From positions 1 to 23,578 of IMG/VR virus record IMGVR_UViG_3300034105_003101: a DNA stretch of 23,578 nt; one strand, 5' to 3'. This document shows, piece by piece, positions 13,379-23,578 of the stretch; position 1 is the stretch's first letter, and every line of letters starts with the position of its first letter. Source of the stretch: a virus. The translations under genes and the position numbers were made by a program. The notes beneath the pieces are model-generated. The model ran no database searches. It was not told where the DNA came from and saw nothing but the letters and a program-made list of their open reading frames with translations.

Positions 13379-13404
13379 ATTCAACCCCCCGTTGACATAT
13401 CAAC
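13379..13404 (+). promoter_or_regulatory. Operator dyad and possible promoter element before the lysis genes
   Basis: ATTCAAC-CCCCC-GTTGACA (13379-13397) is a copy of the operator motif. It overlaps a consensus -35 hexamer TTGACA (13392-13397), and GTTGA-CATA-TCAAC (13391-13404) forms a second small palindrome. No good -10 lies 17 bases downstream; the nearest candidate is TAGGAT at 13434-13439, which fits a GTGAAT -35 at 13411. The 129-base gap between tail and holin genes is therefore probably a control region, but the promoter itself is uncertain. Confidence 0.5.
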
Positions 13405-13421
13405 AAAAGGGTGAATCGGCA

Positions 13422-13476
13422 TCTCCGAGCTGCTAGGATTCTGACCCTGGACAACACGGAATTACCTGCTCGGAGA
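13422..13476 (+). other. Nine-base-pair RNA hairpin masking the holin ribosome site
   Basis: TCTCCGAGC (13422-13430) is perfectly complementary to GCTCGGAGA (13468-13476) with a 37-base loop. The 3' arm holds GGAG (13472-13475), the only Shine-Dalgarno-like sequence before the ATG at 13488. The pairing could delay translation of the lysis genes. The GGAG-to-ATG distance of 12 bases is long, which weakens the argument a little. Confidence 0.5.
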
Positions 13477-13487
13477 CTCTGGACCGT

Positions 13488-13856
13488 ATGGGCCACACGA
13501 CGAACGTAACGAATGCAGCGGTGGCCACAGCCATCACTGTCTGGGGGATCGCCACCGGGCTGACCTATGAGGTGCTGCTGGCGGGCTTTGCTGGCGGACT
13601 TGTGTCGCTCTCATTCCTCGGCCCGTTGACGATCTGGCAACGCATCTGGACGCCGTTCGCGGCAACCCTCACGGCCGGCTACACGTCGCCGATATGGGCG
13701 TACTACCTGTTGAAGTGGTTGGATCGGGACATGCCGGCGCTCCCACTTCTGGTTTTCTCCGCATTCTGCATTGGCTTGGCCGCGCAGGTACTTATCCCGG
13801 TTGGGTTGGAATGGGTGCGACGAAAGGGTGCTACCTACGAAGGGCCATCTATATGA
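13488..13856 (+). CDS. Holin-like small membrane protein
   Basis: 122 residues, ATG start. About three or four hydrophobic segments are visible: roughly 10-30, 31-50, 58-72 and 80-105. The tail is short and basic (VRRKGATYEG). Holins are small multi-span proteins that form the timed hole in the inner membrane. Size, topology and position directly after the tail operon support this call, but no family signature proves it. The stop overlaps the ATG of the next membrane protein (ATGA), so the two are translated together. A stem in the leader may limit initiation. Confidence 0.65.
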   Translation: MGHTTNVTNAAVATAITVWGIATGLTYEVLLAGFAGGLVSLSFLGPLTIWQRIWTPFAATLTAGYTSPIWAYYLLKWLDRDMPALPLLVFSAFCIGLAAQVLIPVGLEWVRRKGATYEGPSI

Positions 13857-14134
13857 CATTGGAAACCGCTCAGATTTACCTAAATTCAGCCGCCGCGCTG
13901 GTGGTCTTGTGGTCATCGGTCTGTGCGCTTTCCCATATGAACCGACACACACGCTTCGACATACGCATCGCCTACATCCTGATGGGAGTTGGTGCACTGG
14001 CCGTGCTGCTGGCTCCGGGTTACCTCGAGCGGATGCCCGACCCCGGCATGATGTTGCTTGCATGGGGTGCCGCCCTGTTGTGCATAGCCAACCGGCGGCG
14101 CAGGCAACGGCAGGAACGCCGCATCACACATTGA
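13853..14134 (+). CDS. Second holin-like membrane protein
   Basis: 93 residues. The frame is open further upstream, but ATG 13853 overlaps the previous stop and gives a sensible N-terminus. Three hydrophobic segments lie at about 8-28, 38-57 and 63-78. Between the first two is a charged loop (SHMNRHTRFDIRIAY), and the end is strongly basic (RRRRQRQERR), as in class I holins. The loop matches a family of small proteins in Pseudomonas phages as I recall it. Together with its partner it may form a holin and antiholin pair or a hetero-oligomeric holin. No endolysin follows; the leftward operon begins 31 bases downstream, without a clear terminator between them. Confidence 0.62.
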   Translation: MTLETAQIYLNSAAALVVLWSSVCALSHMNRHTRFDIRIAYILMGVGALAVLLAPGYLERMPDPGMMLLAWGAALLCIANRRRRQRQERRITH

Positions 14135-14165
14135 GAGGGCGACCATACCGGGGTCGGAAGTCGCA

Positions 14166-14330
14166 TCATTGCTCGGGGCCCGCAGCGGTTTGAAACCTTT
14201 CACAGCCGACAGCTTCGGCGTCCACAGCGCACTTCACCGCCTTGGCCTGGTAGACCTGCTGCTCGATGTGGTCAATTGTGTAAAGCGCAACGCATGTGAA
14301 GACTGCCGCGAAAATTATTAGCCGGGTCAC
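14166..14330 (-). CDS. Small membrane-anchored protein of unknown function
   Basis: 54 residues. GTG start with AAAGGAG 7 bases upstream, a strong site, and 2 bases after the previous gene's stop. Residues 3-18 (RLIIFAAVFTCVALYT) are hydrophobic and would anchor the protein. The remaining 35 residues are polar with C34 and C43. It is the last gene of the leftward operon and faces the lysis genes. It could be a small inner-membrane factor or a spanin-like component, but no lipobox or long coiled coil supports the latter. Confidence 0.6.
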   Translation of the reverse strand: MTRLIIFAAVFTCVALYTIDHIEQQVYQAKAVKCAVDAEAVGCERFQTAAGPEQ

Positions 14331-14332
14331 AG

Positions 14333-14539
14333 TCAAACTCCTTTTGAAAAGCGTGTAGTTAGTATTTCACGAATTTTTGCCAGCTCAGTTCTAGCCACCG
14401 ACAATGTTCTTCCCGGTTGACCCGCACACCTCGGTGCGGGGTCGTCCACGCCCCACGTCAACCCGCATGCTCGACATTCCAGCTCACCGGTGCGTGTCGG
14501 TCGAGGAACCGGGCAGCCGCTCAAGGTTGGCTTCTGCAA
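14333..14539 (-). CDS. Small zinc-finger-like protein
   Basis: Up to 68 residues. C22-x2-C25 (ECRACGLTWGVDDPAPRC) and C38 form a probable zinc knuckle; C9 is the likely fourth ligand. This treble-cysteine pattern with an Asp-Asp-Pro-x-Pro-x-Cys tail recurs in small phage proteins of unknown role. The start is uncertain. No ATG is available; TTG at 14539 overlaps the previous gene, and an in-frame TTG overlaps its TGA stop. Neither has a clear ribosome site, so translation probably depends on the upstream gene. Confidence 0.6.
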   Translation of the reverse strand: MQKPTLSGCPVPRPTRTGELECRACGLTWGVDDPAPRCAGQPGRTLSVARTELAKIREILTTRFSKGV

Positions 14540-14721
14540 AAATCATAGGCACGGATGTAGGTCTTCAGGTTCGGCCCCACTCCGTGCTCGACGACTATGC
14601 GGGGACATAACCCCTGCTGAAGCACCAAAGGTGCAGGTCTGATCCCGAACGGCGCCAGCACCATGAACAGGTTCCCCATAAGCACGGTGGCGAATGCCCA
14701 GCCAGCAGCGAAGCGGGCCAT
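14521..14721 (-). CDS. Small membrane protein, unknown function
   Basis: 66 residues. The ATG at 14721 overlaps the TAA of the gene before (TAATG), which is preferred to an upstream TTG. Residues 4-24 form a single hydrophobic segment (AAGWAFATVLMGNLFMVLAP), consistent with a signal anchor. The rest is polar and has two cysteines. Nothing identifies its function. It belongs to the run of coupled small genes between 16096 and 14166. Confidence 0.6.
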   Translation of the reverse strand: MARFAAGWAFATVLMGNLFMVLAPFGIRPAPLVLQQGLCPRIVVEHGVGPNLKTYIRAYDFCRSQP

Positions 14722-15038
14722 TAGGGGTAAGTCCAACGGAAGCGACCTTCGATCTGCCCGGCTTCGGTGTCGAACACCAGTGCAGAACTCTTGGTCGCGG
14801 CGAAGGTTGGGCGGCAGGCCCTGATTAGCTCACCGGGTGATACTTCGATCAACAGCGGGCAGTCCACCGGCGGCAACTGGTCACGCGGGTTAAGGTGAAT
14901 ACCGGTCCCGTTACGCAGCCGGGCAAGTTCATCTTCAGCCGCAATCAGCTTGTTCATCAGCAGCAGCTGCTTATCGACAGCGTAGGAAATGCGCCGCTTC
15001 AGAATTTCGATCCGGTCACGATTCGACAGATTTGTCAT
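14721..15038 (-). CDS. Hypothetical protein with coiled-coil N-terminus
   Basis: 105 residues. The frame extends upstream, but ATG 15038 overlaps the previous stop (ATGA) and is chosen. Residues 3-45 are charged and helical (a coiled-coil pattern with Leu/Ile repeats and LIAAEDELARL). The second half is beta-like and ends IEGRFRWTYP. Nothing recognisable indicates a function. Translationally coupled to both neighbours. Confidence 0.6.
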   Translation of the reverse strand: MTNLSNRDRIEILKRRISYAVDKQLLLMNKLIAAEDELARLRNGTGIHLNPRDQLPPVDCPLLIEVSPGELIRACRPTFAATKSSALVFDTEAGQIEGRFRWTYP

Positions 15039-15235
15039 TGGCGATAACCCTGCAGCCGAAGACCGAGCCAATGTGAGAACAGGGCTACTGACGGAATGAG
15101 GAACCAGTCGAATGCGACCCAGAAATCAGGAGTTTGTTTACTCAACTGGTGAATCAGCGCGACCACAACCAAGCAGAGCACCACTTGCCGGCGGCTTGTG
15201 CGGGCGCCGAACAGCTTGAATAGGATGCGGTTCAT
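15035..15235 (-). CDS. Small two-span membrane protein
   Basis: 66 residues; ATG overlaps the previous TGA. After a basic start (KLFGARTSRRQ) there are two hydrophobic stretches, about 17-30 and 38-56, which suggests a hairpin in the inner membrane. The end is basic (LRLQGYRQ). Function unknown. Its place beside other small membrane proteins, close to the lysis genes, might hint at membrane remodelling or superinfection exclusion; that is only a guess. Confidence 0.58.
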   Translation of the reverse strand: MNRILFKLFGARTSRRQVVLCLVVVALIHQLSKQTPDFWVAFDWFLIPSVALFSHWLGLRLQGYRQ

Positions 15236-15480
15236 TGCGCACTCTCCGCTGCAATCATGGTATCGGCGTACTCGAGGCGCAGGCGGACCATCTCGGCTAT
15301 CAGCGCGGCAACTCCGAACTCGAGCACACCCATAGTGTTGCGCTGCTGCAGTGACAGGTTGGCGTCATCCAAGCCGATGTGGCTGTGGGCCGCGTAGTAT
15401 TGGCGCATGGTCATACCGCGTGTATCTGAGTAGTCGCTCCGTCCTTTTGGAAAAGCGTAGGCTTTAATCTTCTCGCTCAC
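15232..15480 (-). CDS. Small conserved phage protein, unknown function
   Basis: 82 residues. GTG at 15480 with GAGGA 8 bases upstream, overlapping the previous gene by 17 bases. The pattern TRGMTMRQYYAAHS near residues 20-33, with YADTMIAAES at the end, resembles a small family found in many phages and prophages (an MTLRDYFA-type motif and a C-terminal YADAM helix). No function is established for it. Mostly helical, soluble. Confidence 0.65.
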   Translation of the reverse strand: MSEKIKAYAFPKGRSDYSDTRGMTMRQYYAAHSHIGLDDANLSLQQRNTMGVLEFGVAALIAEMVRLRLEYADTMIAAESAQ

Positions 15481-15733
15481 GTTGAAAGTCCTCGTCAGAT
15501 TTGTAGATGCCCGGCGCGCTGAAGTAGCAGCCCCGGCTGTTGGTGCGATGTGGGAACCACCAACCGGAACACCGGCAGGTCATCGGCCGCACTGGTCGCT
15601 CATTCATCCAGCGGTCAGCTCGGTACTCGCGGCTGCCGCAACTTCGGCATTTTGGGAGCCGGAGGTATTCGTCCGGGTGCTTAGGTAGCACTCTGCGGGT
15701 TTGACACTTCCGGCACCGGCAATGTGTTTTCAC
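15464..15733 (-). CDS. Zinc-ribbon protein
   Basis: 89 residues; GTG start 3 bases after the previous stop, without a strong ribosome site. C7-x2-C10 and C29-x2-C32 form a classic zinc ribbon (CRKCQTRRVLPKHPDEY, then PKCRSCG). C53, C55, H62 and C69 may hold a second metal. Such small ribbons in phages often bind DNA or host proteins, but no specific role can be assigned. I recall a similar N-terminus in Pseudomonas phage hypothetical proteins. Confidence 0.68.
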   Translation of the reverse strand: MKTHCRCRKCQTRRVLPKHPDEYLRLPKCRSCGSREYRADRWMNERPVRPMTCRCSGWWFPHRTNSRGCYFSAPGIYKSDEDFQRERED

Positions 15734-15736
15734 GGG

Positions 15737-16096
<360 letters not shown>

Positions 16097-16140
16097 CAAA
16101 TTACCCTTGCGCCAGTCGCGCTGTTGATTGGTGTAGTCGA

Positions 16141-16170
16141 AGTATATTCAACTATTTGTGGAATGGTCAA
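16141..16170 (-). promoter_or_regulatory. Leftward promoter with operator dyad in its spacer
   Basis: On the minus strand TTGACC (16165-16170), 18 bases, then TATACT (16141-16146). The spacer is filled by the dyad ATTCAAC-TATTT-GTGGAAT (16146-16164 on the plus strand), so a bound regulator would block RNA polymerase. It overlaps the last codons of the gene at 16148-16327. Confidence 0.65.
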
Positions 16171-16327
16171 CAGTCAGTTCGATGTCCCGATCATTCCAGC
16201 CGGCAATGGCCCAGCAGGACGCGAACAGGTCAGTGCGTAACAACATGGGTTTGGCCTTGCCGTTGTTGCGGGCAATTGTTCCGCGCAGGTAATGCTGCTG
16301 GCCGTTGTTCTGCTGGGATTTGCTCAT
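16148..16327 (-). CDS. Small hypothetical protein
   Basis: 59 residues. ATG 16327 overlaps the previous TGA (ATGA) and is preferred to the upstream in-frame start at 16402. Polar N-terminus (SKSQQNNGQQHY), then AKPMLLRTDLFASCWAIAGW. No domain is recognised. Its final codons overlap an operator-bearing promoter for the next operon. Confidence 0.58.
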   Translation of the reverse strand: MSKSQQNNGQQHYLRGTIARNNGKAKPMLLRTDLFASCWAIAGWNDRDIELTVDHSTNS

Positions 16328-16605
16328 TTCAGTTTCATCTCCACGCGCCCATTGACGCGCACGCAGCGGTGAGTGAGTTTGTCCGCGGCTTTCCGGCAGC
16401 AATACTGCAGGCCGTCACGGGTTGGGAAATCGGGGGATGCGGGTGCGAAGTCGCTGACCGGGTGGTAAGCCCGGCAGCTGACGCACAGCTTCATTTCGTA
16501 GTGCTCGCCGTCGCCGTGGCTGCTGGCTATGCGGTTTATGCGAGATTCCCCGCACGAACCGCTGCCGTCATCCTCGGGCCACTGGGGTTCGAGGTTGGCT
16601 TCCAT
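16324..16605 (-). CDS. Small zinc-binding protein
   Basis: 93 residues; ATG overlaps the previous stop (TGATG). C41-x2-C44 followed by YHPVSDFAPASPDF, DGLQYC and C69-C70 resembles the zinc domain (CxxC, Phe, DGL-x-x-C) found at the start of HNH or endonuclease VII-like phage proteins. The catalytic HNH residues are absent, so this is probably only a binding module. It sits between a MazG-like enzyme and a small unknown gene in a coupled run. Confidence 0.62.
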   Translation of the reverse strand: MEANLEPQWPEDDGSGSCGESRINRIASSHGDGEHYEMKLCVSCRAYHPVSDFAPASPDFPTRDGLQYCCRKAADKLTHRCVRVNGRVEMKLK

Positions 16606-17081
16606 CAGAACTTCTTGCCGCCAGCGGCTGCACGGTTCTCGAGCTTATGGTCTGCCCGGTTCTGGTTGTAGGCCAGTTTCTCGATCGTGGCGCCGGCAAG
16701 GTCGAGTTCCAAGAAGCCCGCAAGGTCGAGGATGCGGATCATCGCGTCAGCCAGTTCCACCTCGAGCATCTTGCGGTGCGGCAGCTTGTCGTCCATCAGG
16801 CCCTTGCGGTGACCTTCCATCGCTTCGCTGATCTCCGAGTGGATCAGGCACAGCTTCTCGGGGACGTTCACCTGCTCCAAGATGAGCGGCATGCCCGTCT
16901 TCAGGTCAGTCCACCAGCCGCTGGCCGCTGCGAGTTGGTGGCAGAGGACTTGTGCGTGTGTCAAACCGTCGTGCGCAGCGTAAACACTGTCGCTGTCGGT
17001 AACTTCGCACCGGGGGTCGATGTCCGCCAGAACATTCTCAATGGATTGGCAGGCTAGGTGTACATGGTTGAGTTCGTTCAT
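16605..17081 (-). CDS. MazG-like nucleotide pyrophosphohydrolase
   Basis: 158 residues; ATG with GAGGA 8 bases upstream. The all-alpha NTP pyrophosphohydrolase family hydrolyses (d)NTPs to NMP and PPi, needing Mg ions held by acidic residues. The signature is visible: E83-x2-E86 within HSEISEAMEGHRKG and E109-x2-D112 within EVELADAMIRILDLAG. The N-terminal 60 residues are additional. In phages such enzymes may clean up nucleotide pools or lower alarmone levels; which substrate it uses cannot be told. The DUF3310 gene follows upstream, a frequent neighbour in phages. Confidence 0.8.
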   Translation of the reverse strand: MNELNHVHLACQSIENVLADIDPRCEVTDSDSVYAAHDGLTHAQVLCHQLAAASGWWTDLKTGMPLILEQVNVPEKLCLIHSEISEAMEGHRKGLMDDKLPHRKMLEVELADAMIRILDLAGFLELDLAGATIEKLAYNQNRADHKLENRAAAGGKKF

Positions 17082-17092
17082 AAACTAATTCC

Positions 17093-17494
17093 TCAAAATT
17101 CAGTTGGGTAGCAGGACAGCATCAGCAAGCGGATGTCCGTTTTGATCAGGTGCGGGTACAGCGGGCTGTTGGATTCCAGCCAGAGCGCCAGTCGCCGGAG
17201 AATGGAGGACTCGAGGTCTCCCATTTGGTTGACGTGGCAGTATTCGTCCATCCCGACAACCCAGTCGTGGACCATGTGCTTCTCGGTGGCCAAGGTCTCG
17301 CGCAGCTGGACGAAGTGAAAGGCTTTCTCCAGGTCAGCCTTGCCGCCCTTCTCGGGGTGTCGGCTGACGTACTTGACGATCGAGTGAGCACAACCGTCCA
17401 ACTTGTTGGCCATCGAGAACTCGATGGGCTGGATCGCCTTGGTCTTGTAATGGTCGCCGGCAATCTGGGTTTGCAGCGGGTTTGAATCGGACAT
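17093..17494 (-). CDS. DUF3310 family protein
   Basis: 133 residues. ATG 17494, preceded by AAGGAGG 4 bases away, is preferred to the TTG one codon earlier. Residues 8-65 match the DUF3310 family: AGDHYKTKAIQPIEFS, then AHSIVKYVSRHPEKGGKADL, with the conserved Tyr-Val-x-Arg and Lys-x-Gly-x-x-Asp-Leu pattern. This family is found in many phages, often near nucleotide metabolism genes, and is sometimes called nucleotide-kinase-like, without solid proof. Residues 70-133 are an extra helical part. Confidence 0.85.
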   Translation of the reverse strand: MSDSNPLQTQIAGDHYKTKAIQPIEFSMANKLDGCAHSIVKYVSRHPEKGGKADLEKAFHFVQLRETLATEKHMVHDWVVGMDEYCHVNQMGDLESSILRRLALWLESNSPLYPHLIKTDIRLLMLSCYPTEF

Positions 17495-17529
17495 CAATCC
17501 TCCTTGTCGCTCAGTGTTTCATTGGTTTT

Positions 17530-17557
17530 TGAAGGGCCGCAGGATACCAGCCCTTCA
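17530..17557. repeat. Perfect 8-bp inverted repeat between genes
   Basis: TGAAGGGC (17530-17537) and GCCCTTCA (17550-17557) can form a hairpin in the 75-base gap between the genes at 17570 and 17494. On the transcribed (minus) strand it is followed by AAAACC rather than a T run, so it is not a standard terminator. AGCCC at 17549 could instead pair with GGGCT near 17568, giving two exclusive folds. Confidence 0.5.
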
Positions 17558-17569
17558 CCCGTAGGTGGG

Positions 17570-18082
17570 CTACTCGGCGGCGGCAGGCTCGAGGAACACG
17601 GCCAGTACAGCCTCAACCGCCTCGGCGATCGACTTCGACATTGGCGGCGGCTCGAAGCCCATCTCACGGATCGCGTTGCCGTTGTGGGCGAAGTCGTCCA
17701 TCAGTTGGTTGAGGACGCCACGGATGGCCACAATACTCAGCTCAGGGTGACCGATGCCCCCAATCACCACCGAGAGTTGGTTGTTTACGGCCACCTGCTC
17801 CATGAGCAGTTGTATCCGCACCCGATGCTGCCGCAAATTCGATACTCGCAGGTATGTTTCCTCGGTAATCAGCGTCCGCTCAACGGAGCCGTTGGACTGG
17901 GCGCGTGGAGTTGCCGGGTCCAGCAGGTTTTCGAGATGCGAAACGAAGTCGACGTAAGCCTTCGGCATGCTGATGGGCACTTCTGGTGTCATACGAGCAA
18001 TAATCATCGGCTGAACACCTAACTTAGAACTCCCGACGATCATCAGGTCATTCTCGCGTCGCACTATCCAATAGCTGCTCAT
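17570..18082 (-). CDS. Hypothetical protein in the rdgC operon
   Basis: 170 residues; ATG overlaps the rdgC stop (ATGA). It has a beta-like N-terminus, a helical middle (HRVRIQLLMEQVAVNNQLSV) and a helical end containing FEPPPMSKSIAEAVEAVLAV. No domain is recognised. Tight coupling to rdgC suggests a shared role in DNA metabolism or recombination, but that is only context. Confidence 0.68.
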   Translation of the reverse strand: MSSYWIVRRENDLMIVGSSKLGVQPMIIARMTPEVPISMPKAYVDFVSHLENLLDPATPRAQSNGSVERTLITEETYLRVSNLRQHRVRIQLLMEQVAVNNQLSVVIGGIGHPELSIVAIRGVLNQLMDDFAHNGNAIREMGFEPPPMSKSIAEAVEAVLAVFLEPAAAE

Positions 18083-19071
18083 ACCAACTCATCCTCGTCG
18101 ACGGGATCTTCGATCCAATCGGCCTCGCTCAGCCCGGTAGCCACCAGCTCACCGCCTAAAGCCTCAACGACTTCAGCAACCATTGCCCGCAGTTCGGTGG
18201 ACAGCAGAAGGTAGGTGGCTCGAGCTTCAGTGAGGGTGTTGGCGTCCTCACCCAGATCATCGGACAGCTTGTCGCCCATCTCGACTGGCCACTGGATACC
18301 CTTGAACACCAAGTCGGCGGTGAGGTTGAACGGGATTGCCCAGTCGTCTCTCAGGTTGAAGCTCAGTTCCAGCTCGGTCACTTGGCGGCCATTGGCAAAC
18401 AGGTCAACAATGTCCTCGTCGCTCAGGCACACGTTCTTTCCGCTCAGGGTCTCGGGTTTTTCAGAAGGCACTGAGGATTTGAACGCTTCGCCCACGGACA
18501 GGGTGTTGCTCGGGCTCACACCGTTGGCTACCCAGTGGGTGAATGAAACAACCGGGTCGACCTTAACTGCCAGTGGACGCACCGGGAGGCTACCAAGGGC
18601 TTCACGCAGCAAGCACAGCACGTCTTCAGCTTTCTTGGCACTGTTGGTGTCGATGAAGATGTACGGGTACTGGATCAGCGCGTTGAGCCGGCTGTGGACG
18701 ACGAAAGCGTGCGGCAGCATGGCCATCACCACCTCTTCCTTGATCTGCGACTTCTCTTTGGCCCAGAGGCGGCGCTGCTCGGCTTCCTCGATCTTGGCGA
18801 CCTTCGCCTCGACAGCCTGCTTGACCGCTTTGCCCGGCAGCAGACGTTCCTGCTTCAGCACGCTGATCAGGTAAGTGTCGAGGTTGACCAGCCCAACCAA
18901 GCTGTTCTCGCCACCGAACGGTGACACAAAGCCCATAGTGCTGAATTCTTGGCTGGCGATCTGCCGGGCTGCTTTGGGCACCAAGCATTTACCCAAGTTC
19001 ATCGGGGTTAAGCCGCAGTCGTCATTGACGATCTGGTAAACCGTTGCGTTGCGGAACTGTTGAATACTCAT
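18079..19071 (-). CDS. rdgC: RdgC-like recombination-associated protein
   Basis: 330 residues. The frame is open to 19116, but ATG 19071 has GAGGA 7 bases upstream and gives the expected start. RdgC is a ring-shaped, non-specific double-stranded DNA-binding protein that inhibits RecA action. Family features seen: the N-terminal part with GFVSPFGG, EKSQIKEEVVMAMLPHAFVV (the conserved LLPxAF region, about residues 106-125), FIDTNSAKKAEDVLCLLREA (about 140-160), then SLPVRPL, and the C-terminal LxLxFNLRDDWAI-type strands. E. coli RdgC has 303 residues, so the size fits. Phage copies are known; one role would be protecting or steering phage DNA recombination. First gene of its operon, behind an operator-bearing leader. 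Confidence 0.9.
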   Translation of the reverse strand: MSIQQFRNATVYQIVNDDCGLTPMNLGKCLVPKAARQIASQEFSTMGFVSPFGGENSLVGLVNLDTYLISVLKQERLLPGKAVKQAVEAKVAKIEEAEQRRLWAKEKSQIKEEVVMAMLPHAFVVHSRLNALIQYPYIFIDTNSAKKAEDVLCLLREALGSLPVRPLAVKVDPVVSFTHWVANGVSPSNTLSVGEAFKSSVPSEKPETLSGKNVCLSDEDIVDLFANGRQVTELELSFNLRDDWAIPFNLTADLVFKGIQWPVEMGDKLSDDLGEDANTLTEARATYLLLSTELRAMVAEVVEALGGELVATGLSEADWIEDPVDEDELV

Positions 19072-19115
19072 TTGTAAGTCCTCGTTCTCGGACAATGCTG
19101 TGAATGTGCAGCGCA

Positions 19116-19145
19116 ATGGTAATTCAACTGTTTGTGGAATAACAA
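19116..19145 (-). promoter_or_regulatory. Probable rdgC operon promoter with operator dyad
   Basis: ATTCAAC-TGTTT-GTGGAAT (19122-19140) is the best copy of the operator motif. On the minus strand TTGTTA (19140-19145), 18 bases, then TACCAT (19116-19121) is arranged like the promoter at 16141, though both boxes are weaker. A further half-site GTTGAAT lies at 19153-19159. The leader to the rdgC ATG is about 40 bases. Confidence 0.55.
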
Positions 19146-19606
19146 GTCATCGGTTGAATTATTTGCACCGGATCGAGTGGCGAGGGCAACCGTGAATCCT
19201 CGTCGTGCTTTTGAGGGTGATCGAGTTGGTCGGTTCTCGCCGTTCAAGTCCGGGGCGGTCGCTGAGGGTGATCGAGGCTTTTTGCTTTGCTGCCCGGTTG
19301 AGTTGCTGAGGGTTCCGGTTAGGTACTTGAGGGCTTTTCAAGGGTAACGGTAGGTTACGCCAGCCCGCACAGGTGCGACCCGTTACGCCAGATGCTGCAG
19401 GGGTGTTGCCGGGCATCCGCCGGGGGCCGAAAAACCCTGAAAAAGCGGGGTTTGGGGGTCTGGGCTGGGCGTCAAACTAGGGTCTAGCGCCGCCTGGGCT
19501 GGCCGCTGGCGGGGCTTTCCTGGGCGGTTGGGGCATTGCGTAGGGTTAGCGGCTGCGCACGGCTGGCGCGCTTATAGGCGGCCTGGGGACCGTTTGCCGT
19601 TTGGCT
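19146..19606. other. Gene-free G/T-rich region
   Basis: No frame here has a ribosome site, family match or coupling to neighbours. The plus strand is rich in G and T, unlike the flanking leftward genes. TGAGGGTGATCGAG occurs twice (19212-19225 and 19263-19276), and short stems such as CTTGA/TCAAG near 19330 and AAACCC/GGGTTT near 19428-19454 are present. On the minus strand the latter is followed by a short T run and could be a weak terminator. A replication or packaging role is possible. Confidence 0.5.
19447..19469 (+). other. G-quadruplex motif
   Basis: Four G tracts (19447-19450, 19454-19458, 19462-19464 and 19467-19469) are separated by loops of 3, 3 and 2 bases, which satisfies the standard G3+N1-7 definition. 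It lies in the gene-free region, 143 bases before the tandem array. Confidence 0.7.
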
Positions 19607-19611
19607 GGGCT

Positions 19612-19845
19612 GGGCTGGCGCATTACCTGGGCTGGCGCATTACCTGGGCTGGCGCATTACCTGGGCTGGCGCATTACCTGGGCTGGCGCATTACCTGGGC
19701 TGGCGCATTACCTGGGCTGGCGTATTGGCTGGGCTGGCGCATTACCTGGGCTGGCGTATTGGCTGGGCTGGCGTATTGGCTGGCGTATTGGCTGGCGTAT
19801 TGGCTGGCGCATTGGCTGGCGCATTACCTGGGCTGGCGCATTGGA
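19612..19845. repeat. 17-bp tandem repeat array with 12-bp truncated units
   Basis: The unit GGGCTGGCGCATTACCT starts at 19612 and repeats every 17 bases to 19765. Units at 19714, 19748 and 19765 read GGGCTGGCGTATTGGCT. From 19782 to 19829 there are four 12-base units lacking the first five bases, and a last diverged unit follows at 19830. In all there are ten full units, four short ones and one partial. Because 17 is not a multiple of 3, the array spans all reading frames, and it is unlikely to be coding. Such arrays can be iterons of an origin or protein-binding sites. Confidence 0.9.
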
Positions 19846-19876
19846 TCGACTAGCGCCAGCTGGTCAAATGCCGGGC

Positions 19877-19904
19877 AATAAAAACCCCGCTCAAATGGCG
19901 GGGC
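19877..19904 (-). terminator. Rho-independent terminator of the right-hand leftward operon
   Basis: On the minus strand CCCCGC, a short loop, GCGGGG, then TTTTTATT. Arms are at 19898-19903 and 19885-19890; the T run corresponds to 19877-19884. It lies 25 bases after the stop of the last gene (19929) and would insulate the repeat region and rdgC operon from upstream transcription. Confidence 0.85.
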
Positions 19905-19928
19905 TTGGGTTTGGATCGGTGCCGGGGC

Positions 19929-20114
19929 TTATTCATCCGGCGGTATTGTGACCGGTAGCGCCAACCATAGCGCCAGAATGACGGCAGCCATAACGCCAGC
20001 GCCTAGCCATTCCCCTTTTATTGCAAAGCCAACGGCAAAGACTGCAGCAACTAGGCGCGCCAGCATTACCGCCGCCACGTCGTCGCCTATGCTTTTTTGA
20101 GTTCGGCGGTTCAT
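19929..20114 (-). CDS. Small two-span membrane protein
   Basis: 61 residues. ATG 20114 overlaps the previous stop (ATGA), preferred to a GTG two codons upstream. After a polar basic start (MNRRTQKSIGDDV) there are hydrophobic segments at about 15-32 and 37-56. Last gene of the operon, directly before its terminator. Function unknown. Confidence 0.62.
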   Translation of the reverse strand: MNRRTQKSIGDDVAAVMLARLVAAVFAVGFAIKGEWLGAGVMAAVILALWLALPVTIPPDE

Positions 20115-20518
20115 AACCACACCTGCCCATCGTCGCCCAGGTAGGCGTCAACTTGCCCGGCAGCATCGCTCGCCTTGGTCAAGCGCTCGCCCAGTTCCTC
20201 GGGTAAATCGCCATCCCAAAAGCCGGCCCCGTGGCCGTTGCGCGTCAATGCGAAGTCGTGGCCGGCTAGCGCGAACCCACCGTGCTCTTTCCGTGTTGGA
20301 TAAAGGCCCGCCGCCTCGACAATATCAGCATGGTTTGCCGTGAAAAAGTCTAGACAACCGGCGCGGCATTTATCGGCACCGGCAGTGCTAAGTTCGTAGT
20401 CGTCTAGGTTTACGTCGTCACCGTCTACGGTATCGGCGCTAGACCACAAAAGGGCTGTCGTGTAGCCGGATAAAAAGGCGGCAAAATCGGGTGAATTTAT
20501 AGCGTCTGATTTTTTCAT
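20111..20518 (-). CDS. Conserved phage hypothetical protein (LTRNGHGAGFWD family)
   Basis: 135 residues; ATG with GGGG upstream. The family pattern is clear: FLSGYTTALLWSSAD near the N-terminus, a middle with DCxxFF-type spacing (CLDFFTANHADIV), then GHDFALTRNGHGAGFWDGD and a C-terminal YLGDDGQVW. It is widespread in phages and plasmids, and I know of no established function. Asp- and Glu-rich, acidic overall. Coupled to the next gene by ATGA. Confidence 0.8.
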   Translation of the reverse strand: MKKSDAINSPDFAAFLSGYTTALLWSSADTVDGDDVNLDDYELSTAGADKCRAGCLDFFTANHADIVEAAGLYPTRKEHGGFALAGHDFALTRNGHGAGFWDGDLPEELGERLTKASDAAGQVDAYLGDDGQVWL

Positions 20519-20520
20519 AA

Positions 20521-20772
20521 TTAAACCCCTACATAGCTTTTAAGCGCACGGCGTGCGGCGCTTTCCGATTTAAAAAGGCGCATATCGCCGGCCGTGTTGT
20601 GCAATACGCCGTAAGTGGTGCCGACCACTAAAAAGCGCTCAAAATCGTGTTGCACACTGCAGGAACACTCGCCGGCGTAGGTTAGATAACCGTGGTTATC
20701 GCATAAGACTAGGCGCGCCACTTTAGGGGCTGTCGCCCGTAGCGCGGTTCGGTCAAATTGGCGTTTGATCAT
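20521..20772 (-). CDS. Small hypothetical protein
   Basis: 83 residues. ATG 20772 overlaps the previous stop (ATGA) and is preferred to an upstream TTG. Basic N-terminus (IKRQFDRTALRATAPKVARL), then LCDNHGYLTYAGECSCSVQH with two cysteines, and a basic helical end (SAARRALKSYVGV). No known domain; possibly nucleic-acid binding from its charge. That remains a guess. Confidence 0.6.
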   Translation of the reverse strand: MIKRQFDRTALRATAPKVARLVLCDNHGYLTYAGECSCSVQHDFERFLVVGTTYGVLHNTAGDMRLFKSESAARRALKSYVGV

Positions 20773-21104
20773 GGCGCGCAAACTCCAATAAAAGGCCCGA
20801 CAATATCCAACGGGCTAGGCTGCAGGCCCCGGTAATTGCCCGATAAATGCCATATCGACAGCCCGCGCGGGCGCATAGTGCCCCTGAACATAGCCCAGAC
20901 CGCGCCCTTTGCTTCAAATGCCGTTAGCTCATGGCGCGGCGCCCCGTTTGGCAAAGGCGCATAGGGAACAACGGCGTGAATAGTCACCCGACGGCCGTCG
21001 CGCGTCACATAATCGCCGGGGCCTGTTATAACCAAGGCTTTGCGGTTTATGGGCAAAGTGTTTGCCAGCTGGGCAAAGCTAAAATCTACTTTCGGCATGG
21101 TCAT
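20769..21104 (-). CDS. Conserved phage hypothetical protein
   Basis: 111 residues; ATG overlaps the previous stop and has AAGGAGG 8 bases upstream. The motif GDYVTRDGRRVTIHAVV, followed by AKGAVWAMF and RPRGLSIWHLSGNY, belongs to a small beta-rich family recurrent in phages. No established function. It is one of several such common small families clustered in this operon. Confidence 0.72.
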   Translation of the reverse strand: MTMPKVDFSFAQLANTLPINRKALVITGPGDYVTRDGRRVTIHAVVPYAPLPNGAPRHELTAFEAKGAVWAMFRGTMRPRGLSIWHLSGNYRGLQPSPLDIVGPFIGVCAP

Positions 21105-21313
21105 TGCGCGGCCTCCTTTTCATAATTTCCAACGGGTGACGGGCCCGCGCAACCGCGCCATCCGTTAGCGGCAGCCCAATTGTAAAGGTCCACGCTGTCG
21201 ACCATTACCGGCGATACCGGCAAAAAGCCTTTTTCATCTTTTTCGGAATAAAGGAACGTGCCCACGGTTCCGCACGGCGCAGCGCATTGGATTGCTAAAT
21301 ATGCTTTTTGCAT
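21101..21313 (-). CDS. Small hypothetical protein
   Basis: 70 residues. ATG 21313 is chosen over the GTG five codons upstream because GTGGAG then serves as ribosome site. Starts MQKAYLAIQCAAPCGTVG; three cysteines in all. No domain is recognised. The 38-base gap before it holds an operator-like dyad, so expression of this and following genes may have an extra control point. Confidence 0.6.
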   Translation of the reverse strand: MQKAYLAIQCAAPCGTVGTFLYSEKDEKGFLPVSPVMVDSVDLYNWAAANGWRGCAGPSPVGNYEKEAAQ

Positions 21314-21321
21314 GGTTGAAC

Positions 21322-21340
21322 ACTCCACAAACGGTTGAAA
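21322..21340. promoter_or_regulatory. Operator-like dyad inside the leftward operon
   Basis: Read on the minus strand: TTTCAAC-CGTTT-GTGGAGT, 16 of 19 positions identical to the copy at 19122 but in the opposite orientation relative to the direction of transcription. It fills one of the few intergenic gaps of this operon, just upstream of the ATG at 21313, and overlaps its ribosome site. Confidence 0.5.
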
Positions 21341-21351
21341 GGGTGGGCGCG

Positions 21352-21699
21352 TTAAATGGCGGCGCGGCGCTTGATTAGGCGCGTTGGCGCGGGGTCATTC
21401 TTGCGGTAGTCGCGCAAGTTTTCGCGGGCCTCTGAATAGTCCGCGCTTGCGGTTAAGTCTTCCCAACCGTGCCCATAATTACCCTGCACGACGTGCAAAA
21501 GTTCGGTTTTAGGGCTGCGCGCCAGATAGGCGAAAAAGTAACGGGCGGTTGAGCCGTTCGCGTTACTCGGTCGCCGGTAGCCAACGGCCTTGGCCACGTC
21601 GACCAGCTGCAAAACCGTGTCGCTGTTTAAAGTGTAAAAATCAGCGGTAAGGTTTAAGCCGGGTAACATGGCAAGCGCTGCAGTTTTTTTGCTGGTCAT
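21352..21699 (-). CDS. Conserved phage hypothetical protein
   Basis: 115 residues; ATG overlaps the previous stop. The N-terminal half contains DVAKAVGYRRPSNANGSTAR, then FAYLAR. The second half has VVQGNYGHGWEDLTASADY and ARENLRDYRKNDP, the well-known small domain (QGNYGxGWEDVT, ARExLxxYRxNEP) of phage and prophage proteins. Its function is unknown to me. The combination looks like a fusion of an N-terminal helical segment with this domain. Confidence 0.75.
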   Translation of the reverse strand: MTSKKTAALAMLPGLNLTADFYTLNSDTVLQLVDVAKAVGYRRPSNANGSTARYFFAYLARSPKTELLHVVQGNYGHGWEDLTASADYSEARENLRDYRKNDPAPTRLIKRRAAI

Positions 21700-21968
21700 T
21701 GTGTAGCCTCCAATTTGCGGAATTTAACGGGGGTGGGGTTACACTTTGCCAGTGCAATGATGTAGGCGGCCCAGCGGTTAGGCGGAAAAAGGGCGAGCGG
21801 TGGGGCCTGCAATTTTTCACAACTGATAACGATTACATGCTCGTGCGTGTCATACAGTTTCAAGCGTGCGGCCGCCGCGTCTTGCGCCGGTAGTGTCTTT
21901 TCGACCCGGTAAGCAATGCCGATTGCGCCAGCTTCGCGCCCAATAAAAACAAGTTTAAAAGTGTGCAC
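21696..21968 (-). CDS. Small conserved phage protein
   Basis: 90 residues. GTG 21968 has GGGGAG 8 bases upstream; GTG 21977 is the alternative. Motif HTFKLVFIGREAGAIGIAYR near the start and LKYDTHEH-like LYDTHEHVIVIS in the middle match a small widespread phage family. No function assigned. Coupled with its neighbours on both sides. Confidence 0.68.
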   Translation of the reverse strand: MHTFKLVFIGREAGAIGIAYRVEKTLPAQDAAAARLKLYDTHEHVIVISCEKLQAPPLALFPPNRWAAYIIALAKCNPTPVKFRKLEATQ

Positions 21969-21970
21969 AG

Positions 21971-22315
21971 TTAGCACTCCCCAAATCCGTAGCCGTCTTC
22001 AGAACCGCCCCAGGTGTTGTAGTCACCTTGCGGCATGATCACTTTCAAACAATACCCACGGGGGTCGCCCCTGACAGTTGCCTCAAATTGCACGCCGTGG
22101 CGCGCTTTGATCTTTTCAAGCCCGGCGCGCAATTGGTCGCGCTGGTCAACATAATCCTCAAAATTACAAAGTTTCTCTGCATTGCGCTGGCACTTAATAC
22201 CCAGCAAATGCAGATCATCCTGAAGACGTGCCGCGTCTTTGATTTTCGGAAAATTGCGCGCCACTACTGCTATAGCCTTGGCTCGCCGTTCGCTTTGTTC
22301 CTTTGTCATAGCCAT
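21971..22315 (-). CDS. Conserved phage protein (GDPRGYCLK family)
   Basis: 114 residues. ATG 22315 with GAGGG 8 bases upstream is chosen over an upstream ATG at 22384 that would lie on top of the promoter. Helical N-terminus with RQAEKLC-like spacing (CQRNAEKLCN), then FEATVRGDPRGYCLKVIMP and YNTWGGSEDGYG, the signature of a small family found in phages and plasmids. Function unknown. First gene behind promoter 22357-22397. Confidence 0.78.
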   Translation of the reverse strand: MAMTKEQSERRAKAIAVVARNFPKIKDAARLQDDLHLLGIKCQRNAEKLCNFEDYVDQRDQLRAGLEKIKARHGVQFEATVRGDPRGYCLKVIMPQGDYNTWGGSEDGYGFGEC

Positions 22316-22331
22316 TTGTAAAACCCTCGTT

Positions 22332-22397
22332 TTGCTTGTTTGTTTTAAGAGGCCCCACAATACCACAAGCGGTTGCCTTTTCAACTGTTAGTTGAAT
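22332..22397 (-). promoter_or_regulatory. Leftward promoter with perfect operator dyad and conserved leader
   Basis: On the minus strand TTGAAA (22379-22384), 16 bases, TATTGT (22357-22362), with a TG upstream of the -10 (extended type). The -35 is the left half of the dyad TTTCAAC-TGTTA-GTTGAAT (22379-22397). In the leader, TAAAACAAACAAGCAA (22332-22347) is identical to that of the promoter at 23299. Confidence 0.75.
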
Positions 22398-22399
22398 GA

Positions 22400-22690
22400 T
22401 TAGCCGATTAAATCCTCGACTTTGCGACCCCTGCCCGCGCCATGGTTTACGCCCGCTTTAGTCGGGCACGCGGTAACCGCTGCAACCCGGACGGCGCGAC
22501 GTTCTTTTGTTACGTCCAATAGCCGCCAATTGGCCAATGCTTGGATATACGCCACGGCTTGTGCAAGGTCTGGATCGACTGCAATGCTTGCCGGTATATG
22601 CTCCAAAAGCGCCAGCATTGCGCGGGCGCGCTTTTCCGTTATTGCAGGGCGGCCGATAACGCCGGCCGTTCGACCTTTTGCGCGGATCAT
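22400..22690 (-). CDS. Small basic hypothetical protein
   Basis: 96 residues. ATG 22690 overlaps the previous stop (ATGA) and is preferred to a start at 22729. Basic ends (MIRAKGRTAGVIGRPAITEK, and GAGRGRKVEDLIG) flank a helical middle. The GRPAITEKRARAMLALLEHI part looks like a short amphipathic helix pair. I recognise no DNA-binding motif with certainty, so it is left as unknown. Its stop is just beside the operator at 22379-22397. Confidence 0.62.
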   Translation of the reverse strand: MIRAKGRTAGVIGRPAITEKRARAMLALLEHIPASIAVDPDLAQAVAYIQALANWRLLDVTKERRAVRVAAVTACPTKAGVNHGAGRGRKVEDLIG

Positions 22691-22860
22691 TGGGCAGCCC
22701 CTACCCAGTCGAGCCGGTAACGGCAGCAATTAACAGTTACAAACTTAAACCGATAATCTGGCTTGTTACTGTAATGGGCTGGCCAATAAACAGGCGAGCC
22801 GTCGCTAAGCCAAGCCGCGACAGCGCCCCCTTTACCCTTAACCGCTTTTATCGTGATCAT
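22687..22860 (-). CDS. Very small hypothetical protein
   Basis: 57 residues; too short for many gene finders. ATG 22860 overlaps the previous stop, and its own TGA overlaps the next ATG, so it fits exactly into the chain of ATGA-coupled genes. Sequence features: a basic start (MITIKAVKGKGGAVAAWLSD), then GSPVYWPAHYSNKPDYRF and a pair of cysteines (VNCCRYRLDW). Similar Trp/Tyr-rich small proteins exist in phages; function unknown. Confidence 0.7.
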   Translation of the reverse strand: MITIKAVKGKGGAVAAWLSDGSPVYWPAHYSNKPDYRFKFVTVNCCRYRLDWVGAAQ

Positions 22861-23045
22861 GCCGCCACCTGCAGCGCCAATGCTTTATGTTCGGCGCAAA
22901 TAAGCCATGCCAGCGAATCGCGACCATTGCAGCCCAGCCAATCGCCACAAAAGCGGGCAACATAAACGGCGGTAGGCCTTCCCGTATGTTCTAGCGTGAC
23001 GGTATAGCGGCTATCGGTGCCCCCGTTGTCGTGAGTAATGCGCAT
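22857..23045 (-). CDS. Small hypothetical protein
   Basis: 62 residues; ATG 23045 with GAGGTGG 7 bases upstream. Pattern SRYTVTLEHTGRPTAVYVAR, FCGDWLGC and a helical end (SLAWLICAEHKALALQVAA), with three cysteines. Looks like a small beta-beta-alpha domain. No family assigned. Confidence 0.62.
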   Translation of the reverse strand: MRITHDNGGTDSRYTVTLEHTGRPTAVYVARFCGDWLGCNGRDSLAWLICAEHKALALQVAA

Positions 23046-23057
23046 GATTAGGCCACC

Positions 23058-23252
23058 TCATCCGAGTAGATAAAGCGCGCGGGGCGCCGGGTTATTAGCA
23101 GCGTATGCCGTGGCCTTTGCACGTATGCCGGCCACTTGCCGTTGTTCTTCAATTGCAGGGCTGGCGATAGTCACGCGGCCGGCGCGGTTTACTGCCAGTG
23201 TGAGGCGCTGTTTCCAACTAAGCGGGCGTTTTGCTTTAAAGGATGCTTTCAT
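23058..23252 (-). CDS. Small basic protein, first gene of the early operon
   Basis: 64 residues; ATG with GGAG 9 bases upstream. Very basic N-terminus (MKASFKAKRPLSWKQRLTLA), then a helical part with EEQRQVAGIRAKATAYAANN. Such first early-operon proteins are often host-takeover or DNA-binding factors, but nothing here proves that. It lies just behind a good promoter, so it is probably among the earliest proteins made. Confidence 0.65.
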   Translation of the reverse strand: MKASFKAKRPLSWKQRLTLAVNRAGRVTIASPAIEEQRQVAGIRAKATAYAANNPAPRALYLLG

Positions 23253-23266
23253 TTTGTTTAACTCCG

Positions 23267-23340
23267 TTGCTTGTTTGTTTTATCAAAACCACGGGCGAAC
23301 TATAGCCAAGCAAGGGCAGCTATTCAACTGTTTGTTTACA
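23267..23340 (-). promoter_or_regulatory. Strong leftward promoter with operator half-site and conserved leader
   Basis: On the minus strand TTGAAT (23322-23327), 17 bases, TATAGT (23299-23304): close to the sigma-70 consensus. ATTCAAC-TGTTT-GTTTACA (23322-23340) overlaps the -35; its second half is degenerate. The leader contains TAAAACAAACAAGCAA (23267-23282), shared with the promoter at 22357. Confidence 0.8.
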
Positions 23341-23384: not shown

Positions 23385-23578
23385 CAGCACACCTACCCAC
23401 CACCAGGGCAGCACACCCACCCACCACCAGGGCAGCACACCCACCCACCACCAGGGCAGCACACCTACCCACCACCAGGGCAGCACACCTACCCACCACC
23501 AGGGCAGCACACCTACCCACCACCAGGGCAGCACACCTACCCACCACCAGGGCAGCACACCTACCCACCACCAGGGCA
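23385..23578. repeat. 24-bp tandem repeat array, running off the window
   Basis: Eight full units of 24 bases start at 23385 and every 24 bases to 23553, and a ninth is cut by the window end. The unit begins CAGCACACCTACCC and ends ACCACCAGGG; units 2 and 3 carry C instead of T at base 10. The period is a multiple of 3, so the frames remain open, but no start with a ribosome site precedes them and nothing supports a protein. The minus strand is very G-rich. Confidence 0.92.

What the first reader, a model, noticed from the sequence alone, without database searches (positions are those of the whole stretch)
13379..23340. A shared 19-bp operator dyad in the gaps between transcription units
The motif ATTCAAC-N5-GTGGAAT or close variants occurs at 13379 (ATTCAAC-CCCCC-GTTGACA), 16146 (ATTCAAC-TATTT-GTGGAAT), 19122 (ATTCAAC-TGTTT-GTGGAAT), 21322 (reverse: TTTCAAC-CGTTT-GTGGAGT), 22379 (TTTCAAC-TGTTA-GTTGAAT), 23322 (ATTCAAC-TGTTT-GTTTACA) and perhaps 10166. 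Half-sites are inverted, spaced by exactly 5 bases, and the sites coincide with or abut promoters of the lysis, rdgC, zinc-protein and early units. This looks like the binding site of a single phage regulator that co-ordinates early, middle and late control, comparable in concept to a repressor regulon with many dispersed sites. The regulator gene is not in the window.
Basis: partly seen in the sequence, partly recalled or inferred. Interest (0 to 1): 0.85.

Follow-up and report, generated by a model that had tools for sequence, protein, structure and literature searches.

The report
Genome-wide repressor operators in a phage
The repeated 19-base mirror-image sequence is real: it is one of about 25-30 docking sites scattered over a bacterial virus genome for a lysogeny-type repressor, whose gene I found on a neighbouring contig; its predicted DNA-binding half looks ordinary, but its other half is folded like a DNA-cutting enzyme that has probably lost the cutting residues.

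Summary
A weight matrix trained on six other records, with the window held out, finds seven sites of at least 15 bits in the window (0.05 expected). Site 10166 is noise. The true consensus is symmetric: ATTCAAC-N5-GTTGAAT. Sites often come as abutting 19-bp dyads. Related Casjensviridae phages carry the same operator at roughly 20-30 copies, 7-11-fold enriched between genes, with matching sites upstream of holin and rdgC. About a quarter of strong sites are overlapped by a sigma-70-like promoter, well above a flank-shuffle control. The window is a fragment: a contig from the same metagenome that begins with the window's terminal repeat carries 18 more sites, an integrase, a Cro-like gene and a CI-like repressor. 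Site-rich phages have this CI; nine relatives lacking it have few or no sites. The predicted CI has a P22 c2-type DNA-binding domain and a PD-(D/E)XK nuclease-fold C-terminal domain, apparently degenerate. Best reading: a dispersed-operator lysogeny regulon, working like P1 C1 or L5 Rep, built on an unusual repressor. No binding or expression data exist, so the CI assignment is inferred.

The parts
13379..13397 (.). operator dyad ATTCAAC-CCCCC-GTTGACA, first of an abutting pair upstream of holin
   Evidence: 16.7 bits in held-out matrix; same pair and register upstream of holin in G007, Stutzerimonas prophage, G004, AchV4
   Evidence: 17.8 bits; conserved in the same register
13488..13856 (+). 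holin gene downstream of the operator pair
   Evidence: phrog_198 holin 6e-8; 63-65% identity to homologs in relatives
16146..16164 (.). operator dyad ATTCAAC-TATTT-GTGGAAT lying in the spacer of a minus-strand promoter
   Evidence: 26.4 bits; promoter-like TTGACC-18-TATACT at 16170-16141
16141..16170 (-). sigma-70-like promoter TTGACC-18-TATACT upstream of the gene that starts at 16096
16165..16183 (.). weak abutting second dyad GGTCAAC-AGTCA-GTTCGAT
   Evidence: 7.8 bits, 19 bp from a strong site; suggestive only
19122..19140 (.). operator dyad ATTCAAC-TGTTT-GTGGAAT in the spacer of the rdgC promoter
   Evidence: 25.1 bits; dyad between TTGNNN and TANNAT with 18-bp spacer conserved upstream of rdgC in three relatives
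19116..19145 (-). rdgC promoter candidate TTGTTA-18-TACCAT
   Evidence: read from sequence; aligned with relatives; below the automatic scan's threshold
18079..19071 (-). rdgC gene downstream of the 19122 operator
   Evidence: Pfam RdgC 4e-58
21322..21340 (.). operator dyad ACTCCAC-AAACG-GTTGAAA overlapping the ribosome-binding region of the minus-strand gene starting at 21313, with an extra GTTGAAC half-site at 21315-21321
   Evidence: 18.2 bits; sequence
22379..22397 (.). strongest operator dyad in the window, TTTCAAC-TGTTA-GTTGAAT
   Evidence: 30.1 bits
22360..22378 (.). weak abutting dyad ATACCAC-AAGCG-GTTGCCT
   Evidence: 7.1 bits, 19 bp from a strong site
22357..22384 (-). promoter TTGAAA-16-TATTGT whose -35 lies in the dyad, upstream of the gene starting at 22315
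23322..23340 (.). operator dyad ATTCAAC-TGTTT-GTTTACA
   Evidence: 18.9 bits
23299..23327 (-). promoter TTGAAT-17-TATAGT whose -35 lies in the dyad, upstream of the gene starting at 23252
23385..23578 (.). 24-bp tandem repeat that ends the contig and opens contig G001, which carries the repressor gene
   Evidence: TRF; 97% match over 119 bp at G001 12-130

Best explanation
The dyads are operators of a phage lysogeny repressor. A dimer of a CI-like protein (gene at L102:15358-16020 on contig G001, the adjoining part of the same phage genome) binds ATTCAAC-N5-GTTGAAT, one HTH domain per half-site. It represses by covering the -35 or filling the -35/-10 spacer of sigma-70 promoters. Abutting 19-bp dyads are probably filled co-operatively by two dimers. 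About 25-30 such sites lie over the whole genome, so the prophage is silenced at many promoters at once rather than only at one early switch. A small Cro-like protein (YdaS-type HTH) beside the primase gene probably shares the operator at the divergent switch. Shown by sequence analysis: the sites, their conservation, promoter overlap, tandem phasing, and co-occurrence with the CI gene. Inferred: that CI is the binder, co-operativity, lysogeny, and transcriptional repression.
For: Sites: held-out matrix finds 7 window sites of at least 15 bits, 0.05 expected. Conservation: pattern within 2 mismatches 28x in AchV4 (control 4), 27x in YMC16 (1), 28x in G004 (3), 26x in G007 (2). In a Stutzerimonas genome 15 of 29 sites with at most 1 mismatch fall in a ~57 kb prophage of a 4.6 Mb genome (counted from the listing). 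Placement: 17 of 31 AchV4 sites in the 5% non-coding DNA and 20 of 27 YMC16 sites in 9.9%. Promoters: 35 of 126 strong sites overlapped by promoter-like sequence, 9.3 +/- 3.1 with shuffled flanks; dyad-in-spacer 15 against 1.6; -35 in dyad 19 against 4.9. Tandem: a second site 19 bp away at 12-17% of 163 strong sites, 0.45% base rate. Syntenic footprints upstream of holin (5 phages) and rdgC (4 phages). Regulator: CI in G001 (phrog_2967 9e-33), 65% identical to AchV4's with the same VSHEAVRKWF helix, an operator just upstream of it (29.1 bits), and an integrase on the contig. CI not detected in nine relatives, which have at most 2 strong sites where tested or near-control pattern counts. CAAC-N5-GTTG 1.53 per 10 kb at CI loci against 0.19 for other spacings; 0.25 against 0.16 without CI. 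Outer operator base shifts with recognition-helix residue 3.
Against: No binding, expression or lysogeny data. The CI gene is on a different contig, joined by a tandem-repeat overlap (97% over 119 bp), shared metagenome and complementary gene content, with about 1.3 kb estimated missing at the other junction. The helix/operator shift maps to essentially one branch of the CI tree, so it is one coincidence, not many. The Cro-like gene is also in every site-rich genome checked, so CI and Cro cannot be separated there; CI-less Phobos-type phages keep two strong sites, one at their cro start. Some sites lie inside late structural genes and are not at promoters. Loci were chosen by CI homology, and promoter calls are consensus matches.
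Confidence: 0.8

Rival explanations
1. The main reader of the dispersed dyads is the small Cro-like (YdaS-type) protein, not CI; the sites damp early genes during lytic growth.
For: Homologs lie beside the primase in all site-rich genomes checked, with operators flanking the gene. CI-less Phobos, PspYZU01 and Ppu-503 keep the Cro homolog and two strong sites, one at the cro start.
Against: Phages with this Cro but no CI have only 0-2 strong sites in the stretches held, and S-ESS1 has none. SS2019XI and AH2 carry CI and a small protein in the cro position that looks unlike it by eye, yet SS2019XI still shows the CAAC-N5-GTTG spike. CI's recognition helix is identical where the operator is identical.
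Confidence: 0.12
2. The sites act mainly as stoperators: repressor bound between and within genes blocks elongating RNA polymerase, as in mycobacteriophage L5. (This is a rival about mechanism; it is compatible with CI being the binder.)
For: Many sites, some in late operons or directly before major tail, fiber or adaptor genes without a promoter call; L5 precedent (PMC6550527).
Against: L5 sites are asymmetric and oriented with transcription; these are symmetric. A significant share sit exactly on promoters.
Confidence: 0.25
3. The motif is only a recurrent sigma-70 -35 element (TTGAAT/TTGACA) and the mirror half is incidental.
For: TTGAAT or TTGACA in one half-site serves as -35 in 19 of 126 strong sites.
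Against: Both half-sites and the exact 5-bp spacing are enriched, in 15 other cases the dyad lies between the hexamers, and adjacent dyads keep 19-bp phase.
Confidence: 0.03
4. The sites belong to a host regulator.
For: They are at sigma-70-type promoters.
Against: In the Stutzerimonas genome they concentrate in the prophage; presence follows the phage CI gene across several host genera.
Confidence: 0.02

Closest known systems
Phage P1 C1 repressor and its 22 dispersed operators (PMC8546580)
   Same: One lysogeny repressor, some twenty operators over the phage genome, repressing lytic genes.
   Different: P1 operators are 17 bp and asymmetric; here 19-bp symmetric dyads, often in abutting pairs. 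No relation of the proteins was tested.
Mycobacteriophage L5/Bxb1 immunity repressor and stoperators (PMC6550527)
   Same: Up to about 30 sites over the genome; site motif diverges together with the repressor.
   Different: L5-type sites are 13 bp, asymmetric, mostly promoter-free and oriented with transcription; here symmetric and frequently on promoters.
P22 c2 / 434 / TP901-1 CI DNA-binding domains
   Same: Predicted N-terminal domain matches P22 c2 bound to operator DNA (3jxb, Z 10.6, rmsd 1.6, 65 residues).
   Different: The C-terminal domain matches PD-(D/E)XK nucleases (I-Ssp6803I Z 11.6, Hjc Z 9.3).
Achromobacter phage AchV4 gp78 and Klebsiella phage YMC16/01/N133 gp07 (PMC7996906; Casjensviridae)
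   Same: Orthologous CI-like gene, 57-65% identical among the three, same helix, same operator, similar gene order.
   Different: Proposed there as cI-related from HHpred; I found no mention of operators, palindromes or motifs in that paper.

Membership tests
Dispersed-operator lysogeny repressor system (works like P1 C1 / L5 Rep) | One motif repeated about 20-30 times over the phage genome | tested here: met
   26-28 pattern matches in four relatives with low reversed-pattern controls; 18 in G001 plus 7 strong in the window
Dispersed-operator lysogeny repressor system (works like P1 C1 / L5 Rep) | Sites concentrated at promoters or gene gaps | tested here: met
Dispersed-operator lysogeny repressor system (works like P1 C1 / L5 Rep) | Phage-encoded HTH repressor with integrase or prophage state | tested here: met
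   CI and integrase on G001; prophage in Stutzerimonas. That the window's phage itself forms lysogens is inferred
Dispersed-operator lysogeny repressor system (works like P1 C1 / L5 Rep) | Repressor binds the sites and represses | not testable with these tools
   needs gel shift, footprinting or reporters
L5-type stoperators | Asymmetric sites oriented with transcription | tested here: not met
   the two half-sites are mirror images in nearly all sites listed; the matrix itself was symmetrised, so symmetry rests on the listed sites
Lambda/186 CI repressor family | XRE/lambda-repressor-like HTH domain | tested here: met
   Pfam HTH_3 5e-6; P22 c2 match
Lambda/186 CI repressor family | LexA/S24-like C-terminal domain | tested here: inconclusive
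   CTD alone (pLDDT 93) matches PD-(D/E)XK nucleases; absence of LexA/S24 from the list does not exclude it
PD-(D/E)XK nuclease superfamily (CTD fold) | Fold | tested here: met
   predicted model: I-Ssp6803I Z 11.6, NhoI 10.1, Hjc 9.3
PD-(D/E)XK nuclease superfamily (CTD fold) | Catalytic D...ExK residues | tested here: inconclusive
   by eye on alignment A6 the E-x-K strand reads H-(I/V)-(S/A) in most rows while the D of VD(F/L)Y is kept in most; no structural superposition of active sites was run
Casjensviridae | Related tail genes, gene order and about 58-60 kb genome | tested here: met
   tail protein about 31-36% identical to family members; late/RdgC/early order as in AchV4 and YMC16; window plus G001 = 58.2 kb. 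Formal demarcation not run

The most novel reading that the evidence does not exclude
A family of temperate phages silences its whole genome with a repressor made of a P22-type DNA-binding domain fused to a decommissioned PD-(D/E)XK nuclease domain used for oligomerisation. Paired dimers on 19-bp-phased tandem dyads, and possibly bridging between distant operators, would hold 25-30 sites shut and perhaps condense the prophage.
Probability: 0.35. Interest if true: 0.8.

Novelty: new variant of a known kind. Interest (0 to 1): 0.62.

Why it matters
Dispersed-operator lysogeny control is well described in few phages, notably P1 and L5-like mycobacteriophages. This adds an apparently separate example in phages of common Gram-negative hosts, with symmetric, tandem operators that can be read straight off genomes and should predict immunity groups. 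The predicted repressor pairs a classic HTH with a nuclease-fold domain, a combination I did not find described for a lysogeny repressor in the papers searched (the searches were narrow), and it raises the question of how such a repressor oligomerises and is induced.

Tried and rejected
Near-identical contigs L006 and L007 are copies of the window and give no independent conservation. Megablast to phages found nothing. The palindrome is absent or rare in FoX4, phiAxp-2, phiWae15, Chi, Enc34 and S-ESS1, which first looked like non-conservation and then proved to follow absence of the CI gene. 10166 rejected as a ribosome-binding site. The uniform random-position control for promoter overlap (1.4 expected) was too lenient because half-sites resemble -35 hexamers; replaced by flank shuffling. 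The H/Q helix-operator association looked very strong (Fisher 4e-18), but the tree shows about one informative switch, so it is down-weighted. De novo gapped-palindrome search gave nothing above noise in AH2. A holin-leader hairpin had no covariation support. Rfam found no reliable RNA. Literature searches found no report of this operator or of a nuclease-fold phage repressor, but the library is partial and these searches were narrow. LexA/S24 folds were not among the listed structural matches of the CTD, which does not exclude them.
Full report
CHECK OF THE OBSERVATION. Exact-pattern counts exceed dinucleotide shuffles (12 against 1.4, none of 100 shuffles as high), although both strands of a palindrome are counted. 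To avoid circularity I trained a 19-position weight matrix on 86 sites from six other records and scored the held-out window. Seven sites reach 15 bits; 0.05 are expected. They are 22379, 16146, 19122, 23322, 21322, 13398 and 13379. Site 10166 scores 7.6 and is a Shine-Dalgarno sequence. The consensus is A/T-T-T-C-A-A-C, five bases with A/T preferred at the centre, and the mirror image (the matrix was built from both strands of each site and is symmetric by construction; the individual sites listed show the symmetry directly).

THE WINDOW IS A FRAGMENT. It is a complete IMG/VR record of 23,578 bp from a siphophage with tape measure, tail, holin, rdgC and pyrophosphatase genes. Its tail protein is about 31-36% identical to those of Casjensviridae. 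Two nearly identical contigs exist, one of them from metagenome 3300042393.

RELATED PHAGES. A de novo search for gapped palindromes gave TTCAAC-N5-GTTGAA as a leading motif in Klebsiella phage YMC16/01/N133 and Achromobacter phage AchV4. Whole-genome counts within two mismatches are 27 and 28 against reversed-pattern controls of 1 and 4, and near control level in FoX4, Chi, Enc34, phiAxp-2, S-ESS1 and PspYZU01. In AchV4 17 of 31 matrix sites lie in the 5% of non-coding DNA and in YMC16 20 of 27 in 9.9%.

THE REGULATOR. A scan for relatives of AchV4 gp78, a CI-like XRE protein, found contig IMGVR_UViG_3300042393_000897 (here G001), from the same metagenome as the window's copy. It begins with the 24-bp tandem repeat that ends the window (97% over 119 bp) and ends at what looks by position like the start of the major tail gene, while the window starts just before the tape measure gene. 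Together they make 58.2 kb, the size of the family. I take G001 as the adjoining part of the same phage; this is inference. G001 carries 18 pattern matches, a primase, exonuclease, helicase, endolysin, integrase and small terminase, a Cro-like gene at 6726-6968 with operators on both sides, and the CI gene at 15358-16020 with a 29-bit operator directly upstream. Its recognition helix VSHEAVRKWF is identical in AchV4 and YMC16. The CI was not detected in nine relatives, which have near-control counts or few strong sites. CAAC-N5-GTTG occurs at 1.53 per 10 kb in 70 CI-bearing loci against 0.19 for other spacings, and 0.25 against 0.16 in six phage stretches without CI.

A PROPHAGE. The Stutzerimonas stutzeri 28a22 genome holds a CI 52% identical to AchV4's with phage tape measure, holin, rdgC, primase and integrase homologs around it. 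Counting the listing, 15 of its 29 sites with at most one mismatch fall within about 57 kb of the 4.6 Mb genome. This argues for a phage-specific regulon and against a host regulator.

HOW THE SITES ARE PLACED. Of 126 strong sites, 35 are overlapped by a sigma-70-like promoter; with flanks shuffled and the dyad kept the mean is 9.3, sd 3.1. Two layouts recur. The dyad fills an 18-bp spacer (15 against 1.6 expected), as at 16146 (TTGACC-18-TATACT). Or one half-site forms the -35 (19 against 4.9), as at 22379 and 23322. Upstream of rdgC the spacer layout is conserved in four phages, and upstream of holin an abutting pair of dyads keeps the same register in five phages while the N5 spacers vary. 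Over 163 strong sites a second site lies exactly 19 bp away in 12% (one side) and 17% (other side) of cases, against a 0.45% base rate. This phasing also appears as an unselected GTTG in the training flanks.

SPECIFICITY. Across CI homologs the base just outside CAAC is mostly T when recognition-helix residue 3 is H and mostly A when it is Q (63:6 against 40:94). The Cro-like protein remains a plausible partner: CI-less Phobos-type phages keep two strong sites, one at the cro start.

THE REPRESSOR'S SHAPE. AlphaFold2 on 16 homologs (pLDDT 88.7) gives an N-terminal HTH domain closest to P22 c2 bound to operator (3jxb, Z 10.6, rmsd 1.6 over 65 residues) and a C-terminal domain matching PD-(D/E)XK nucleases. 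The C-terminal domain predicted alone (pLDDT 93.0, pTM 0.86) matches I-Ssp6803I (Z 11.6, 119 residues), NhoI, archaeal Hjc and, lower, EcoRV and DpnI. By eye on the alignment the E-x-K strand reads H-x-S in most rows, so catalysis is probably lost; I did not superimpose active sites. Lambda and 186 repressors matched essentially over the first domain among the rows listed.

VERDICT. A dispersed-operator lysogeny regulon is the best explanation (0.8). It works like P1 C1 and L5 Rep; it is not an L5-type stoperator system by site symmetry. New variant of a known kind. All function is inferred from sequence and predicted structure.

Noticed in passing
L102:15358-16020 (contig G001): The CI-like repressor's C-terminal domain is predicted as a PD-(D/E)XK nuclease fold with an apparently degenerate active site, rather than a LexA/S24 fold.
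   Followed up: partly
19610-19825: 17-bp (CTGGGCTGGCGCATTAC, about 10 copies) and 12-bp (GGCTGGCGTATT, 5-6 copies) tandem repeats in a gene-poor gap between the rdgC operator and the early genes.
   Followed up: no
23385-23578: 24-bp tandem repeat, 8 copies, that breaks the assembly; it continues at the start of G001.
   Followed up: partly
13417-13487: Possible hairpin (CTCCGAGC...GCTCGGAG) in the holin leader; relatives have a different inverted repeat at the same place, but no covariation support was found with four sequences.
   Followed up: partly
L104-L107 (Stutzerimonas stutzeri 28a22): A prophage of this phage group, about 57 kb by its operators, usable as a laboratory model lysogen.
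   Followed up: partly
L030 (Aquamicrobium zhengzhouense): CI homolog 43% identical to AchV4's with seven CAAC-N5-GTTG sites within 20 kb, suggesting the system reaches Alphaproteobacteria.
   Followed up: no
window 19877-19969 (-): Sub-threshold Rfam hit to Trp_leader (28 bits, gathering 41), probably chance.
   Followed up: no
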